DNA of 64,000 nt from the NCBI GenBank assembly GCA_030149365.1, contig JASBRP010000004.1, positions 186,001-250,000 of the forward strand. The letters are read 5' to 3'. The number at the start of each line of letters is the position of its first letter. The stretch's first letter is position 1. Below the pieces are notes generated by a model. It did not search any database and was not told the origin of the DNA. It saw nothing but the letters and a program-made list of their open reading frames with translations. Positions 41,394 through 49,841 of this stretch are shown piece after piece. The position numbers were made by a program, and so were the translations under genes. The DNA comes from Solimonas sp. GTDB lineage: Bacteria > Pseudomonadota > Gammaproteobacteria > Nevskiales > Nevskiaceae.

Positions 41394-41858
41394 TCAGGCC
41401 TGGGGCGCCGCTCCGGCTGGGGCTGCCGGCGCGCGCGGTGCCAGGAAACGCCGCGACAGCAGCAGGCCCACGGCCATCGCCGCGACGAAGACCAGCACCG
41501 GCAGGCTGCCGCTGGAGCCGACCACCAGGGCCGGACCGGGGCAGAGACCCGACAGGCCCCAGCCGCCGCCGAACAGGGCGGCGCCGCCGACCAAGCGGGC
41601 GTCGATCAGGGTCCGGTCCGGCAGGCTCAGGGGAGCGCCGGCCAAGGTGGTGCGATGGCGCCGGGCCCAGGCGAAGGCCGGCAGGGCGGCCAGGATGGCG
41701 CCACCCATGACGAAGGCCAGGGCCGGGTTCCACTGCCCGGTGATGTCGAGGAAGGCGCGGACCTTGGCGGGGTCGGTCATGCCCGACAGGATCAGGCCGA
41801 AGCCGAACAGCAGGCCGGCACCGGCGGCGGCAATCAGGGGTTTGCTCTGGCTGCTCAT
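41394..41858 (-). CDS. YeeE/YedE family sulfur-transport membrane protein, half 2
   Basis: 154 residues with four to five membrane helices. GFGLILSGMTDPAKV near the N-terminus and the GGGWGLSGLCPGPAL loop (containing the conserved Cys) are hallmarks of YeeE/YedE (PF04143/PF20398) proteins, some of which import thiosulfate (TsuA-type). It overlaps half 1 by 4 bases, so the two small proteins probably form one transporter. Confidence 0.92.
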   Translation of the reverse strand: MSSQSKPLIAAAGAGLLFGFGLILSGMTDPAKVRAFLDITGQWNPALAFVMGGAILAALPAFAWARRHRTTLAGAPLSLPDRTLIDARLVGGAALFGGGWGLSGLCPGPALVVGSSGSLPVLVFVAAMAVGLLLSRRFLAPRAPAAPAGAAPQA

Positions 41859-42289
41859 GCGCTCACTCCGAAACCAAGGGCGACGGTGATCATCGCCACG
41901 CCCATGAAGGTGAGGACCGCGACCAGGCTGCGCAACGAGAAGTTGGCCAGGCCGCAGACGCCGTGGCCGCTGGTGCAGCCATTGCCCAGCTGGGTGCCGA
42001 CGCCCACCAGCAGGCCGGCGCCGATCAGCGCGCCCCACTGCGGCGTGGCCAGCGCGCCGCCGAGCTCCAGCGGCTGCACCAGCCGCCACAGCCAGGGCGT
42101 GGCCAGCAGCGCCAGCAGGAAGACCACGCGCACACGGTCGCGGCCGGTGCTGAGGGCGTTGCCGAAGATGCCGCTGATGCCGGCGATGCGGCCGCTGCCC
42201 AGCAGCAGCAGCGAGGCCGAGGCTCCGATCAGCAGGCCGCCGGCCAGCGAGGCGGCGGCGTCCGGGATACTGAAGACGATGGTGGTCAT
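41855..42289 (-). CDS. YeeE/YedE family sulfur-transport membrane protein, half 1
   Basis: 144 residues, four to five membrane helices. GASASLLLLGSGRIAGISG and the GVGTQLGNGCTSGHGVCGL loop with conserved Cys residues are diagnostic. It pairs with the 41394 protein to give the two-part form of the family. In the same minus-strand cluster as the FadL-type porin and unknown secreted protein, beside the encapsulin locus. Expected to import thiosulfate or a related sulfur species. Confidence 0.92.
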   Translation of the reverse strand: MTTIVFSIPDAAASLAGGLLIGASASLLLLGSGRIAGISGIFGNALSTGRDRVRVVFLLALLATPWLWRLVQPLELGGALATPQWGALIGAGLLVGVGTQLGNGCTSGHGVCGLANFSLRSLVAVLTFMGVAMITVALGFGVSA

Positions 42290-42309
42290 GGGACGTCCCT
42301 GGCTTTCGC

Positions 42310-46935: not shown

Positions 46936-47005
46936 AAGCGCGCTTCATAACGCGCGAATCTGAGCTTATTCCAAACGCCTCAAGACGCAGCAAGGAGCGA
47001 CTTTC

Positions 47006-47932
47006 ATGGCTGAGTACACCGCCCCCCAGACCCTGGGCGATAGCGGCGCGCGCCAATTGGCGAACGCCACCAAGACCCCGGCGCAGTACTCCATCATCAC
47101 GCCGCGCTGGCTGGTGCATCTGCTGCAGTGGCAGCCAGTGGAGGCGGGCATCTACCGCGTCAACACGGTGCTCAACCCGGCCGACGTGCGTACCGCCTGC
47201 ACCGCCAAGGAATCGGGCGAGCTGCCGGACTCCTTCGTCGACTACGACCCGGCGCCGCGCGAGTACTTCCTGAACGCGCAGACCACCAAGCTCAACATCA
47301 ACACCCGCGTCTCGGACCTCTACTCGAGCCCGCACGACCAGATCAAGGAACAGCTGCGCCTGACGATCGAGACGATCAAGGAGCATCAGGAGAGCGAGCT
47401 GATCAACAACCCCGACTACGGCCTGATCGCCAACGTCGTGGAGAGCCAGCGCATCTTCCCGCTGACCGGCGCCCCGACGCCGGACGACCTGGACGAGTTG
47501 CTGACCAAGGTGTGGAAGGAGCCGGCCTTCTTCCTGACCCACCCGCTGGTGATCGCCGCCTTCGGCCGCGAGTGCACCCGCCGCGGCGTGCCGCCGCCGA
47601 CCGTGAGCCTGTTCGGTGCGCAGTTCCTGACCTGGCGCGGCATCCCGCTGATCCCGTCCGACAAGGTCCCGGTGGCCGACGGCAAGAGCAAGATCCTGCT
47701 GCTGCGCGTGGGCGAGAAGCGCCAGGGCGTGGTCGGCCTGTTCCAGCCCGGCCTGCCGGGCGAGCAGAGCCCCGGCCTGTCGGTGCGCCTGATGGGCATC
47801 GACCGCTTCGCCATCGCCTCCTACCTGATCTCGCTGTACTGCTCGCTGGCGATCCTCACCGACGATGCCGTGGCGATCCTGGATGACGTGGAAGTGAACA
47901 AGTTCCATGACTACCCCGACACCTACAAGTGA
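47006..47932 (+). CDS. srpI: Family 2A encapsulin nanocompartment shell protein (SrpI type)
   Basis: 308 residues, the usual length for family 2A. Recognisable blocks are TPRWLVHLLQWQPVEAGIYRVN, YDPAPREYFLNAQTTKLNI, the SDLYSSPHDQIKEQLRLTIE..EHQESELINN spine-helix region and PPTVSLFGAQFLTWRGIPLIPSDK, all with an HK97-like shell pattern. Sixty copies should assemble into a T=1 compartment of about 24 nm that encloses the cysteine desulfurase encoded next. Flanking cysE, rhodanese and YeeE/YedE genes match sulfur-storage encapsulin loci. The 3' end is overlapped by the cargo gene. Confidence 0.96.
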   Translation: MAEYTAPQTLGDSGARQLANATKTPAQYSIITPRWLVHLLQWQPVEAGIYRVNTVLNPADVRTACTAKESGELPDSFVDYDPAPREYFLNAQTTKLNINTRVSDLYSSPHDQIKEQLRLTIETIKEHQESELINNPDYGLIANVVESQRIFPLTGAPTPDDLDELLTKVWKEPAFFLTHPLVIAAFGRECTRRGVPPPTVSLFGAQFLTWRGIPLIPSDKVPVADGKSKILLLRVGEKRQGVVGLFQPGLPGEQSPGLSVRLMGIDRFAIASYLISLYCSLAILTDDAVAILDDVEVNKFHDYPDTYK

Positions 47933-49841
47933 GTTTGCAGGCCGGGGAGAGGACGCGGGCGGCTTGCTCGACATCGGCGCGCTGACGCAGATCGCCAACG
48001 ATCTGTTCCGGGAGCTGCCGACCGGCGGCCAATGGCCGACGGCGCCCTCGCGCCCGGCCGGCCTGACCCTGCCGCAGCCAGCGGGTGCGCCGCCGCTGCC
48101 GGCCAATCCCCTGCCGCTGGCCACCAGCCTGCCGGCGACGCCGCCCTTCGTGGTGTCGCAGCCCGCAGCGGCCGCGGCGGCGGCACCGCCTTCGGCGATC
48201 ACGCCGCGGGTGCTGCCGACGCAGTCGCAGTCGCTGGACCAGCATGGCTTCAACACCACCGTGGCGCCGGCACTGCCGCATGGCGGTGGCGTGAGCCAGG
48301 GCGTGCCGGAGGCCTACGCCGCCGGTCTGCCGGCCGCCGCCCCGGTGCCGCTGCCCACCGACAGCGCCTTGCCGGCGCCGCCGCTGTCGCCGCCGTCGAC
48401 GCCCTACTACTTCCTCGGCGAGGCCAGTGGCTGGCCCTCGTCCGCCGCGCCGGCTCCGCTGCCGACGGTGCCGGACTTCGCCGTGCCGGCGGGCCTGGAC
48501 ACACACGTGCTGCGCGAGCCCGCGGCGCCCGCGCCTGCCGCTCCGGCTGCGCCGCAGTACTATTTCACCGAGTCCGCCACGCCGCCGGCGCGCGGTACAC
48601 CCGCCGTGCCCGAAGGGCGCCGTCATTTCGACGTGCAGGCCGTGCGTCGTGACTTCCCGATCCTGCAGGAGCGCGTCAATGGCCGGCCGCTGGTGTGGCT
48701 GGACAATGCCGCCACCACGCAGAAGCCGCAGGCGGTGATCGATCGCCTGGCCTACTTCTACGCGCACGAGAACTCCAACATCCATCGCGCCGCGCACGAG
48801 CTGGCCGCGCGCGCCACGGATGCCTACGAGGGCGCACGCAACAAGGTGGCGCGCTTCCTGGGCGCGAGCTCGGCGGAGGAGATCATCTTCGTCCGCGGCG
48901 CCACCGAGGCGATCAATCTCGTGGCCCAGAGCTGGGGCCGGCAGAACGTGCGCGAGGGCGACGAGATCATCGTGTCGCAGCTGGAGCACCACGCCAACAT
49001 CGTGCCCTGGCAGATGCTGGCGGCCGAGAAGGGCGCGAAGCTGCGCGTGATCCCGGTGGACGACAGCGGCCAGGTGCGCCTGGACGAATACCAGAAGCTG
49101 CTGAACGACCGCACCAGGATCGTGGCCGTCACCCAGGTCTCCAATGCGCTGGGCACCATCGTGCCGGTGCTGCAGATCGTGGAGATGGGCCACCGCGCCG
49201 GCGCCAAGGTGCTGATCGACGGCGCCCAGGCGGTGTCGCACCTGCGCGTCAACATGCGCGCGCTGGACGCCGACTTCTACGTGTTCTCCGGGCACAAGAT
49301 CTTCGGCCCCACCGGTATCGGCGTGGTCTACGGCAAGCGCGAGCTGCTGGAGCAGATGCAGCCCTGGCAGGGCGGCGGCAACATGATCCAGGACGTGACC
49401 TTCGAGAAGACCGTCTATCACGGCGCCCCGGCACGTTTCGAGGCCGGCACCGGCAACATCGCCGACGCGGTCGGCCTGGGCGCGGCGCTGGATTACCTGG
49501 AGCGCCTGGGCCTGGAAAACGTGGCGGCCTACGAGCATGACCTGCTGGAGTACGCCACCCAGCTGCTGCGGGGCATTCCGGGCCTGCGCCTGATCGGCAC
49601 GGCCAAGGAGAAGACCAGCGTGCTGTCCTTCGTGTTGCAGGGCTACCAGACCGAAGAGGTCGGTAAGGCCCTGAACCAGGAAGGCATCGCGGTGCGCTCC
49701 GGCCACCACTGTGCCCAGCCGATCCTGCGCCGCTTCGGCGTCGAGGCCACGGTGCGGCCCTCGCTGGCCTTCTACAACACCTGCGAGGAAGTGGAGTTGC
49801 TGGCGCGGGTGGTGCAGCGGCTGGCACGAGCCCGCAACTAG
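47907..49841 (+). CDS. Family 2A encapsulin cargo: SufS-type cysteine desulfurase with disordered targeting domain
   Basis: 644 residues; ATG 47907 lies 26 bases inside the 3' end of the shell gene in another frame. Residues 1-238 are Ala/Pro-rich and probably disordered, with short ordered patches: LDIGALTQIANDLFRELP (21-38), TPYYFLGEASGWPS (165-178) and QYYFTESATPP (217-227). Residues 239-644 form a class II (SufS) desulfurase with His361, Asp438, PLP Lys464 (SGHKIF) and Cys602 in the VRSGHHCAQP loop. It releases sulfur from cysteine inside the shell; the N-terminal patches are the likely shell-binding motifs. Confidence 0.96.
   Translation: MTTPTPTSEFAGRGEDAGGLLDIGALTQIANDLFRELPTGGQWPTAPSRPAGLTLPQPAGAPPLPANPLPLATSLPATPPFVVSQPAAAAAAAPPSAITPRVLPTQSQSLDQHGFNTTVAPALPHGGGVSQGVPEAYAAGLPAAAPVPLPTDSALPAPPLSPPSTPYYFLGEASGWPSSAAPAPLPTVPDFAVPAGLDTHVLREPAAPAPAAPAAPQYYFTESATPPARGTPAVPEGRRHFDVQAVRRDFPILQERVNGRPLVWLDNAATTQKPQAVIDRLAYFYAHENSNIHRAAHELAARATDAYEGARNKVARFLGASSAEEIIFVRGATEAINLVAQSWGRQNVREGDEIIVSQLEHHANIVPWQMLAAEKGAKLRVIPVDDSGQVRLDEYQKLLNDRTRIVAVTQVSNALGTIVPVLQIVEMGHRAGAKVLIDGAQAVSHLRVNMRALDADFYVFSGHKIFGPTGIGVVYGKRELLEQMQPWQGGGNMIQDVTFEKTVYHGAPARFEAGTGNIADAVGLGAALDYLERLGLENVAAYEHDLLEYATQLLRGIPGLRLIGTAKEKTSVLSFVLQGYQTEEVGKALNQEGIAVRSGHHCAQPILRRFGVEATVRPSLAFYNTCEEVELLARVVQRLARARN

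What the first reader, a model, noticed from the sequence alone, without database searches (positions are those of the whole stretch)
41394..49841. Sulfur-storage island built around a family 2A encapsulin with an unusual import side
Seen: srpI-type shell, SufS-type cargo with a 238-residue disordered N-terminus, EpsC-type serine acetyltransferase, rhodanese, a small XRE regulator and, divergently, YeeE/YedE halves, an unknown secreted protein and a FadL-type porin. Shell, cargo and cysE co-occurrence is known for sulfur-storing encapsulins. The FadL porin plus secreted protein plus YeeE/YedE suggests a dedicated pathway that brings an external, possibly hydrophobic, sulfur source to the compartment. 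That import branch is, as far as I know, not characterised.
Basis: partly seen in the sequence, partly recalled or inferred. Interest (0 to 1): 0.85.

Follow-up and report, generated by a model that had tools for sequence, protein, structure and literature searches.

The report
Sulfur-import module wired to encapsulin
In Solimonas bacteria the genes for a protein shell predicted to store sulfur sit back to back with genes that elsewhere accompany sulfur oxidation and likely bring outside sulfur into the cell, and one short DNA motif precedes both sets and the gene for the sulfur regulator CysB, so capture and storage would be switched on together.

Summary
The + strand operon (rhodanese, serine acetyltransferase, XRE regulator, family 2A shell, cysteine desulfurase cargo) is ordinary: most of 80 fetched srpI loci share it. 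The divergent import side is not unique to encapsulins. The FadL-type porin and the secreted protein (tandem DUF302-like fold, no cysteine) form a pair common in sulfur oxidisers: 86 of 369 class genomes carry the secreted protein, and 80 of these also carry SoxB (69 of the other 283). In the order, all 7 carriers outside the window's genus have SoxB and none has the shell. The pair meets srpI only in Solimonas (4 of 4 genomes), which lacks SoxB and SoxY. A Sox-type porin joined srpI a second time in three Dechloromonas-like loci, inserted between two promoter elements that lie together in a porin-less relative. In each of four Solimonas genomes a 22-base motif (at most one mismatch) occurs four times: before the porin operon, the encapsulin operon, cysB and a serine hydrolase gene. 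Best reading: a Sox-type sulfur importer recruited into a sulfur-limitation regulon that feeds a storage shell. Substrate, flux and regulator are untested.

The parts
41394..41858 (-). DUF6691, PmpA-like half of a YeeE/YedE sulfur channel (one Cys)
   Evidence: PF20398 148.8 bits; Cys count; PmpA/PmpB described in PMC11582611 section 6
41855..42289 (-). Sulf_transp, PmpB-like half of a YeeE/YedE sulfur channel
   Evidence: PF04143 27.9 bits, cut-off 27; Cys 105 and 112
42310..43257 (-). secreted 315-aa protein, tandem DUF302-like fold, no cysteine ('SEC315')
   Evidence: N-terminal hydrophobic segment seen in sequence; AF2 pLDDT 89.7; Foldseek to DUF302 1q9u prob 1.00, E 1.9e-3; several homologs carry PF03625
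43277..44827 (-). FadL/TodX-type outer-membrane channel
   Evidence: PF03349 58.7 bits; TodX 1.1e-29; fold
44896..44917 (+). shared 22-base motif on the porin side of the divergent promoter region
45003..45024 (+). shared 22-base motif on the rhodanese side, inside a 36-base block identical in 4 of 4 Solimonas genomes
45105..45611 (+). rhodanese (CRSGRR loop)
   Evidence: PF00581 49 bits; in 79 of 80 srpI loci
45676..46641 (+). serine O-acetyltransferase, EpsC/CysE type
   Evidence: NF041874 166.6 bits; in 71 of 80 srpI loci
46660..46935 (+). small XRE regulator
   Evidence: PF01381 52.7 bits; in 65 of 80 srpI loci
47006..47932 (+). family 2A encapsulin shell (SrpI)
   Evidence: NF041162 508 bits; PDB 8t6r, 6x8m
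47907..49841 (+). cysteine desulfurase cargo with long Pro/Ala-rich N-terminus; start overlaps the shell gene by 26 bases
   Evidence: NF041166 899.7 bits
51707..51728 (-). shared 22-base motif (1 mismatch) before cysB
   Evidence: (G000:C4:237707-237728)
51848..52828 (+). CysB, cysteine/sulfur-limitation regulator
   Evidence: NF009326 517.9 bits, cut-off 436

Best explanation
An ordinary family 2A encapsulin operon lies divergently from a porin/DUF302/PmpAB module whose porin and DUF302-type genes elsewhere travel with soxB, one 22-base motif precedes both units and cysB, and together they likely form a CysB-controlled system that imports external sulfur and stores it in the shell. Inferred steps: when sulfur is short, CysB would activate both units; the porin would let a sulfur compound (perhaps elemental sulfur, polysulfane or another hydrophobic form) cross the outer membrane; the cysteine-free periplasmic DUF302-type protein would bind it non-covalently and hand it to the PmpAB channel; in the cytoplasm rhodanese would take the sulfane sulfur, serine acetyltransferase would supply the acceptor for cysteine, and the encapsulated cysteine desulfurase would deposit surplus sulfur inside the shell. 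Shown: gene content, SoxB linkage of the secreted protein, its pairing with the porin, the genus-restricted adjacency of the pair to srpI, no SoxB or SoxY match over cut-off in four Solimonas genomes, the shared motif, and a second joining of a Sox-type porin to srpI. Not shown: substrate, direction of flux, which regulator binds.
For: SoxB linkage: SEC315 in 86 of 369 class genomes; SoxB at E<1e-100 in 80 of those 86 against 69 of 283 others, Fisher p 9e-32. Order: SEC315 11 of 85, shell 19 of 85, SoxB over cut-off 12 of 85; outside Solimonas 7 of 7 SEC315 carriers have SoxB against 5 of 74 others, p 2e-7, and 0 of 7 have the shell. A FadL-family porin is next to SEC315 in 10 of 10 order loci and 15 of 20 class loci; 20 of these 25 porins fall in one 100/100 clade with the window's. 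SoxX-cluster genes in 12 of the 27 non-Solimonas stretches. Solimonas: 4 of 4 genomes have the whole island, 0 of 4 SoxB over cut-off, 0 of 4 SoxY with two positive controls. Motif: four sites in each of 4 genomes, two in this divergent region, one before cysB, 0 in the reversed control. Second joining: porin before rhodanese in L029, L034, L045, on a 100/100 branch apart from Solimonas. In L029 and L045 the two best matrix matches of the whole locus lie before porin and before rhodanese; 0 of 500 column-permuted matrices did this in two loci. By eye the same two elements flank the porin in L034 too, and stand 66 bases apart, with no porin between, in L026.
Against: SEC315 in 0 of 80 fetched srpI loci, the best 80 of 588 matches; only 1 of 48 shell-bearing genomes in a 199-genome sample of the Dechloromonas family has a porin relative within 10 kb of the shell (fragmented contigs may hide some). 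One of the four motif sites precedes a serine hydrolase gene with no evident sulfur role. The motif matrix is only weakly enriched before rhodanese in srpI loci overall: best of the locus in 19 of 79, permuted mean 11.1, 6 of 100 permutations as high. For L034 the matrix ranks no site before the porin among its best six. Similarity between the two sites of the divergent region is at chance level taken alone (15-16 of 22 against a shuffled 95th percentile of 16), and one dyad is lost in L113. The porin-side window was set after the sites had been seen. As L026 has both elements without a porin, the elements belong to the encapsulin promoter and the porin may have landed there by chance. No site before canonical cys genes was looked for.
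Confidence: 0.5

Rival explanations
1. Two unrelated sulfur modules are neighbours by descent. The porin module is a relic of a lost Sox system and serves sulfur detoxification or general assimilation; it does not feed the shell. Both could still answer to the same regulator.
For: No SoxB or SoxY over cut-off in 4 Solimonas genomes; in the SEC315 tree Solimonas lies inside a 20-row clade (100/100) with six of the seven SoxB-positive carriers of its family (the seventh, L114, was not in the tree) and database proteins, so inheritance plus relocation is enough; shell and SEC315 are not associated outside the genus.
Against: The island is kept intact in 4 of 4 species although the gene next to it changes (tonB match in L111 and L112, none in L113); motif shared by both units and cysB; second porin-srpI joining.
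Confidence: 0.3
2. The small XRE protein, not CysB, binds the shared motif and co-ordinates both units; the copy before cysB means that XRE also controls cysB.
For: XRE is encoded in the operon and matched in 65 of 80 srpI loci; both sites in the window's divergent region hold 6-4-6 dyads, one perfect and one 5 of 6.
Against: A copy stands before cysB in 4 of 4 genomes, where autoregulation by CysB is expected (recalled from enterics); outside Solimonas no upstream region matches the rhodanese-side core with fewer than 4 mismatches of 18, although most of those loci encode XRE.
Confidence: 0.2
3. The porin imports hydrocarbons or fatty acids and its place here is incidental; only PmpAB is a sulfur transporter.
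For: Closest solved relatives carry aromatics or fatty acids; 5 of 20 class loci have only a distant FadL-family porin beside SEC315 and 5 have none.
Against: The porin clade of the window is next to the SoxB-tracking secreted protein in 20 of 30 loci examined and was joined to srpI twice.
Confidence: 0.2

Closest known systems
Family 2A encapsulin with cysteine desulfurase cargo (SrpI; PMC8049743 abstract and sections 5 and 15 read; PMC8346489 abstract and section 8, part 1 of 2 read)
   Same: Shell, cargo with long N-terminus, serine acetyltransferase and rhodanese; the two latter are reported there as the most highly enriched accessory genes
   Different: Divergent porin/DUF302/PmpAB module with a shared motif; none of these is named in the sections read
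Sulfur-storing family 2A encapsulin (Benisch et al. 2024, PMC10836720; not held, title seen only in a reference list)
   Same: Title claims that a widespread bacterial protein compartment stores elemental sulfur; that it is this family is recalled
   Different: No import side is recalled for it
PmpA/PmpB short YeeE-family proteins and SoxT (PMC11582611 abstract and section 6 read)
   Same: Two short halves with conserved cysteines; sulfur import into the cytoplasm is shown there for SoxT1A
   Different: Here encoded with a FadL-type porin and beside an encapsulin, in a genus without SoxB
FadL/TodX outer-membrane channels
   Same: Sequence and fold
   Different: A SoxB-associated subfamily whose predicted mature N-terminus carries the sequence ATNGY; substrate unknown
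DUF302 protein of a sox operon in Acidithiobacillia (PMC10512742, one passage seen)
   Same: A DUF302 protein called a sulfur oxidation sox operon protein
   Different: Mentioned in passing; no porin partner or function given in the passage

Membership tests
Family 2A encapsulin | SrpI-like shell over the curated cut-off | tested here: met
   NF041162 508 bits, cut-off 380; PF19307 327 bits, cut-off 22.8
Family 2A encapsulin | no inserted cNMP-binding domain (as in 2B) | tested here: met
   308 aa; only PF19307 found in Pfam; NF041163 (2B) below cut-off, 393.7 of 400
Family 2A encapsulin | cysteine desulfurase cargo with unannotated N-terminal targeting region | tested here: met
   NF041166 899.7 bits, cut-off 800; Pro/Ala-rich 238 residues; loading itself not testable
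Family 2A encapsulin | sulfur stored in the shell | not testable with these tools
   needs purification and sulfur assay
SoxB-associated porin/SEC315 pair (defined here) | FadL-family porin adjacent to SEC315 | tested here: met
   window, 10 of 10 order loci, 15 of 20 class loci
SoxB-associated porin/SEC315 pair (defined here) | SoxB in the same genome | tested here: not met
   80 of 86 class carriers have it, but Solimonas 0 of 4 over cut-off
DUF302 (PF03625) | sequence match over cut-off | tested here: not met
   no match in the window protein; 1 of 20 aligned homologs at E 0.17; some homologs carry a precomputed PF03625 label
DUF302 (PF03625) | fold | tested here: met
   1q9u prob 1.00, TM by target 0.69, rmsd 2.7, but E 1.9e-3 and about one repeat aligned
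PmpA/PmpB halves of YeeE/YedE | two short proteins, each with the conserved cysteine | tested here: inconclusive
   144 and 154 aa; Cys at 105/112 and one Cys in GLSGLCPGPAL; criteria from PMC11582611 section 6; no alignment to PmpA/PmpB was made
FadL/TodX channels | Toluene_X domain, beta-barrel fold | tested here: met
   58.7 bits, cut-off 29.7; FadL and TodX lead the Foldseek list
CysB regulon | motif shared with the cysB upstream region | tested here: met
   four sites per genome, one before cysB with 1 mismatch
CysB regulon | motif before canonical cysteine-biosynthesis genes | not tested
   The genome search cap reached
CysB regulon | CysB binds and activates | not testable with these tools
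   needs footprinting and RNA-seq

The most novel reading that the evidence does not exclude
The FadL-type porin with its DUF302-type periplasmic partner is a general, uncharacterised outer-membrane route for zero-valent or hydrophobic sulfur in sulfur oxidisers; twice, in Solimonas and in Dechloromonas-like bacteria, the porin was taken out of the oxidation setting, put under the sulfur-limitation regulon and attached to an encapsulin that stores what it brings in.
Probability: 0.3. Interest if true: 0.82.

Novelty: new variant of a known kind. Interest (0 to 1): 0.62.

Why it matters
How insoluble or hydrophobic sulfur crosses the outer membrane is an open question as far as I know (recalled), and where a family 2A encapsulin gets its sulfur beyond cellular cysteine is not settled in the sections read. 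A secreted protein that tracks SoxB across a class, its porin partner, and two lineages in which that kind of porin is tied to the promoter region of a sulfur-storage shell make both questions testable with single deletions in non-pathogenic strains.

Tried and rejected
Rejected: SEC315 as an orphan protein (homologs in 86 of 369 genomes). Rejected: YedE/DUF6691 as a frameshifted gene (two Pfam families, two proteins). Rejected: porin and SEC315 as a regular part of srpI loci (0 of 80 for SEC315, 3 of 80 for the porin, 2 of 80 for the YeeE/YedE halves). Tried without clear result: the 18-base core of the rhodanese-side block before rhodanese in 92 loci (no match with fewer than 4 mismatches outside Solimonas); dyads and words in the same 92 regions (ACGAATAAA in 25 of 92, not followed up); motif before the porin in 12 of the 27 Sox-type stretches (none stands out from its shuffles); enrichment before rhodanese overall (weak). 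Solved structures by sequence for SEC315: none at E up to 1.

Literature: ten searches in the held library only. 'encapsulin' with 'FadL' gave two papers, by title and abstract about vaccines (listing only); 'DUF302' with 'sox' and 'outer membrane' gave one (passage); 'FadL' with thiosulfate and sulfur oxidation gave two, a passage seen in one, unrelated; 'sox', 'FadL', 'elemental sulfur' and 'outer membrane' gave one, passages seen, on acid stress. These searches found no paper that describes this pairing; most subscription papers were not searchable.
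Full report
WHAT IS THERE. The finding is real. On the + strand: rhodanese, EpsC-type serine acetyltransferase, small XRE regulator, family 2A shell and cargo cysteine desulfurase, whose start overlaps the shell gene by 26 bases. On the - strand, 277 bases away: FadL/TodX-type porin, a 315-residue secreted protein ('SEC315'), and two short YeeE/YedE-family proteins. Two kilobases past the cargo lies cysB (51848-52828; NF009326 518 bits, cut-off 436). 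The SEC315 homolog named Solimonas sp. K1W22B-7 (84%) lies on a contig of the same length as that of the same-genus genome G051; I therefore call the genus Solimonas.

THE ENCAPSULIN SIDE IS ORDINARY. In these 80 loci a rhodanese match is present in 79, serine acetyltransferase in 71, XRE in 65 and the cargo's enzyme domain in 78, some loci being cut by contig ends. Nichols et al. (PMC8049743, sections 5 and 15 read) and Andreas and Giessen (PMC8346489, section 8 part 1 read) describe shell, cargo, serine acetyltransferase and rhodanese. Storage of elemental sulfur is the title claim of Benisch et al. 2024, which is not held; I saw it only in a reference list.

THE IMPORT SIDE IS A SOX-LINKED MODULE. 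SEC315 was sought in 85 genomes of the order (11 carriers) and 369 of the class (86 carriers); the shell in the same sets (19; 7); SoxB likewise (12 over cut-off; 147 over cut-off). Counting SoxB at E<1e-100 (149 genomes), 80 of 86 SEC315 carriers have it against 69 of 283 non-carriers (p 9e-32); the six exceptions are G000, G138, G341, G398, G418 and G439. In the order, all 7 carriers outside the window's genus have SoxB (5 of 74 others do) and none has a shell; all 4 Solimonas genomes have the shell and none has SoxB over cut-off (two have weak matches, E 4.9e-16 and 1.4e-10) or SoxY (two positive controls). The window's assembly is 93% complete, the other three 99-100%. Shell and SEC315 show no association outside the genus (class 1 of 86 carriers against 6 of 283, the one being the window genome).

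A FadL-family porin is adjacent to SEC315 in 10 of 10 order stretches (L111-L120, three of them Solimonas) and in 15 of 20 class stretches; the 20 were my choice among the class hits. Of the 25 porins, 20 fall in one 100/100 clade with the window's; those of L175, L180, L181, L182 and L185 are distant. Class stretches without a porin match are L166, L174, L176, L177 and L184; L166 and L174 hold two SEC315 copies each. Neighbouring gene clusters were named by NCBIfam on one member each: SoxX, SoxY, SoxA, SoxZ and SoxC over cut-off, a SoxH-like hydrolase and DsrE2 below it. A SoxX-cluster member occurs in 12 of the 27 non-Solimonas stretches. PmpAB-type genes lie within the stretch in L111-L113, L114, L115 and L119. 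In a SEC315 tree Solimonas lies inside a 20-row clade (100/100) with six of the seven SoxB-positive carriers of its family and database proteins (L114 was not in the tree), so descent with relocation explains the origin.

WHAT THE PARTS LOOK LIKE. SEC315 folds with confidence (pLDDT 89.7) into two DUF302-like repeats and has no cysteine, so it cannot carry sulfur as a cysteine persulfide; a non-covalent binding role is inferred. By sequence the DUF302 model does not match the window protein. The porin profile matches TodX (1.1e-29), TbuX and CymD better than FadL (2e-6) by sequence; by fold FadL leads and TodX follows. Li et al. [quoted passage not shown] the window pair has the expected kind of size and cysteines, though no alignment to PmpA or PmpB was made.

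A SHARED MOTIF. The divergent region of four Solimonas genomes holds conserved blocks, the longest 36 bases identical in 4 of 4. A 22-base pattern read from two of them, with up to one mismatch, occurs exactly four times in each of the four genomes and never in the reversed control: on the porin side, on the rhodanese side, before cysB, and on another contig, in the window's genome before a serine hydrolase. CysB is therefore the likeliest binder; the operon's XRE is the rival. The pattern was built from the two sites in the divergent region, so those two matches are by construction; the cysB and hydrolase sites are not. Taken alone, the similarity of the two divergent-region sites is at chance level.

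A SECOND JOINING. In L029, L034 and L045 (two Dechloromonas and one unnamed proteobacterial bin) a related porin lies just upstream of rhodanese, and a cysteine synthase gene lies between rhodanese and serine acetyltransferase. L034 adds a PmpAB-type pair and a DUF2325 gene. These porins sit inside the Sox-type porin clade but on a 100/100 branch apart from Solimonas, and their genomes have SoxB. A matrix from seven Solimonas sites finds its two best matches in L029 and in L045 before the porin and before rhodanese; 0 of 500 column-permuted matrices did so in two of the three loci, 4 did so in one. The window before the porin was set after seeing the sites. Reading the DNA shows why: in the porin-less relative L026 two elements stand 66 bases apart before rhodanese, and in L029, L034 and L045 near-identical elements flank the porin gene, as if the porin had been inserted into the encapsulin promoter region. 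This fits control of the porin by the upstream element, but it also means that the elements belonged to the encapsulin promoter first. The linkage is rare: in 199 genomes of that family sample the porin relative (E up to 1e-30) is in 60 and the shell in 48, but only the starting genome has them within 10 kb. Before Sox-type porins the motif does not stand out (12 of 27 stretches scanned). Before rhodanese in srpI loci overall it is only weakly enriched (19 of 79; permuted mean 11.1; 6 of 100 as high).

READING. A Sox-type importer was brought next to, and likely under the control of, the sulfur-limitation system that governs an otherwise standard sulfur-storage encapsulin, in a genus in which no SoxB or SoxY was found.

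Noticed in passing
window 52825-54626 (+): MbnP-family protein (PF20243, 160 bits) followed by an MbnH/MauG-like di-haem enzyme, directly after cysB; the MbnP gene start overlaps the cysB stop.
   Followed up: no
window 37868-41234 (+): TonB-dependent receptor and a DUF899 protein beside the import cassette; a match to the receptor is adjacent in L111 and L112 but not in L113.
   Followed up: partly
80 srpI loci (L002-L081): A small XRE regulator is matched in 65 of 80 loci and a cysteine synthase gene (over 200 bits) in 10 of 80; neither is named in the sections of the two encapsulin surveys that I read.
   Followed up: partly
L208 (around G000:C25:100803); L198, L199, L209 in the other three genomes: Another exact copy of the motif, in the window's genome before a PF06821 serine hydrolase gene; its neighbours in the other three genomes were not read.
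   Followed up: partly
400 bases upstream of rhodanese in 92 srpI loci (L002-L081 without L031, L111-L113, L121-L130): The word ACGAATAAA recurs in 25 of 92, perhaps another conserved promoter element.
   Followed up: no
L166 and L174: Tandem duplicated SEC315 genes without a porin match next to them.
   Followed up: no
L064 13771-14253: A PmpAB-type pair about 6 to 7 kb downstream of the start of a shell operon's cargo gene, with no porin match.
   Followed up: no
L045 14744-15643, also L009, L036, L066, L067: CysB-family genes (46-49% identical to the window's CysB) within the fetched 20 kb around srpI.
   Followed up: no
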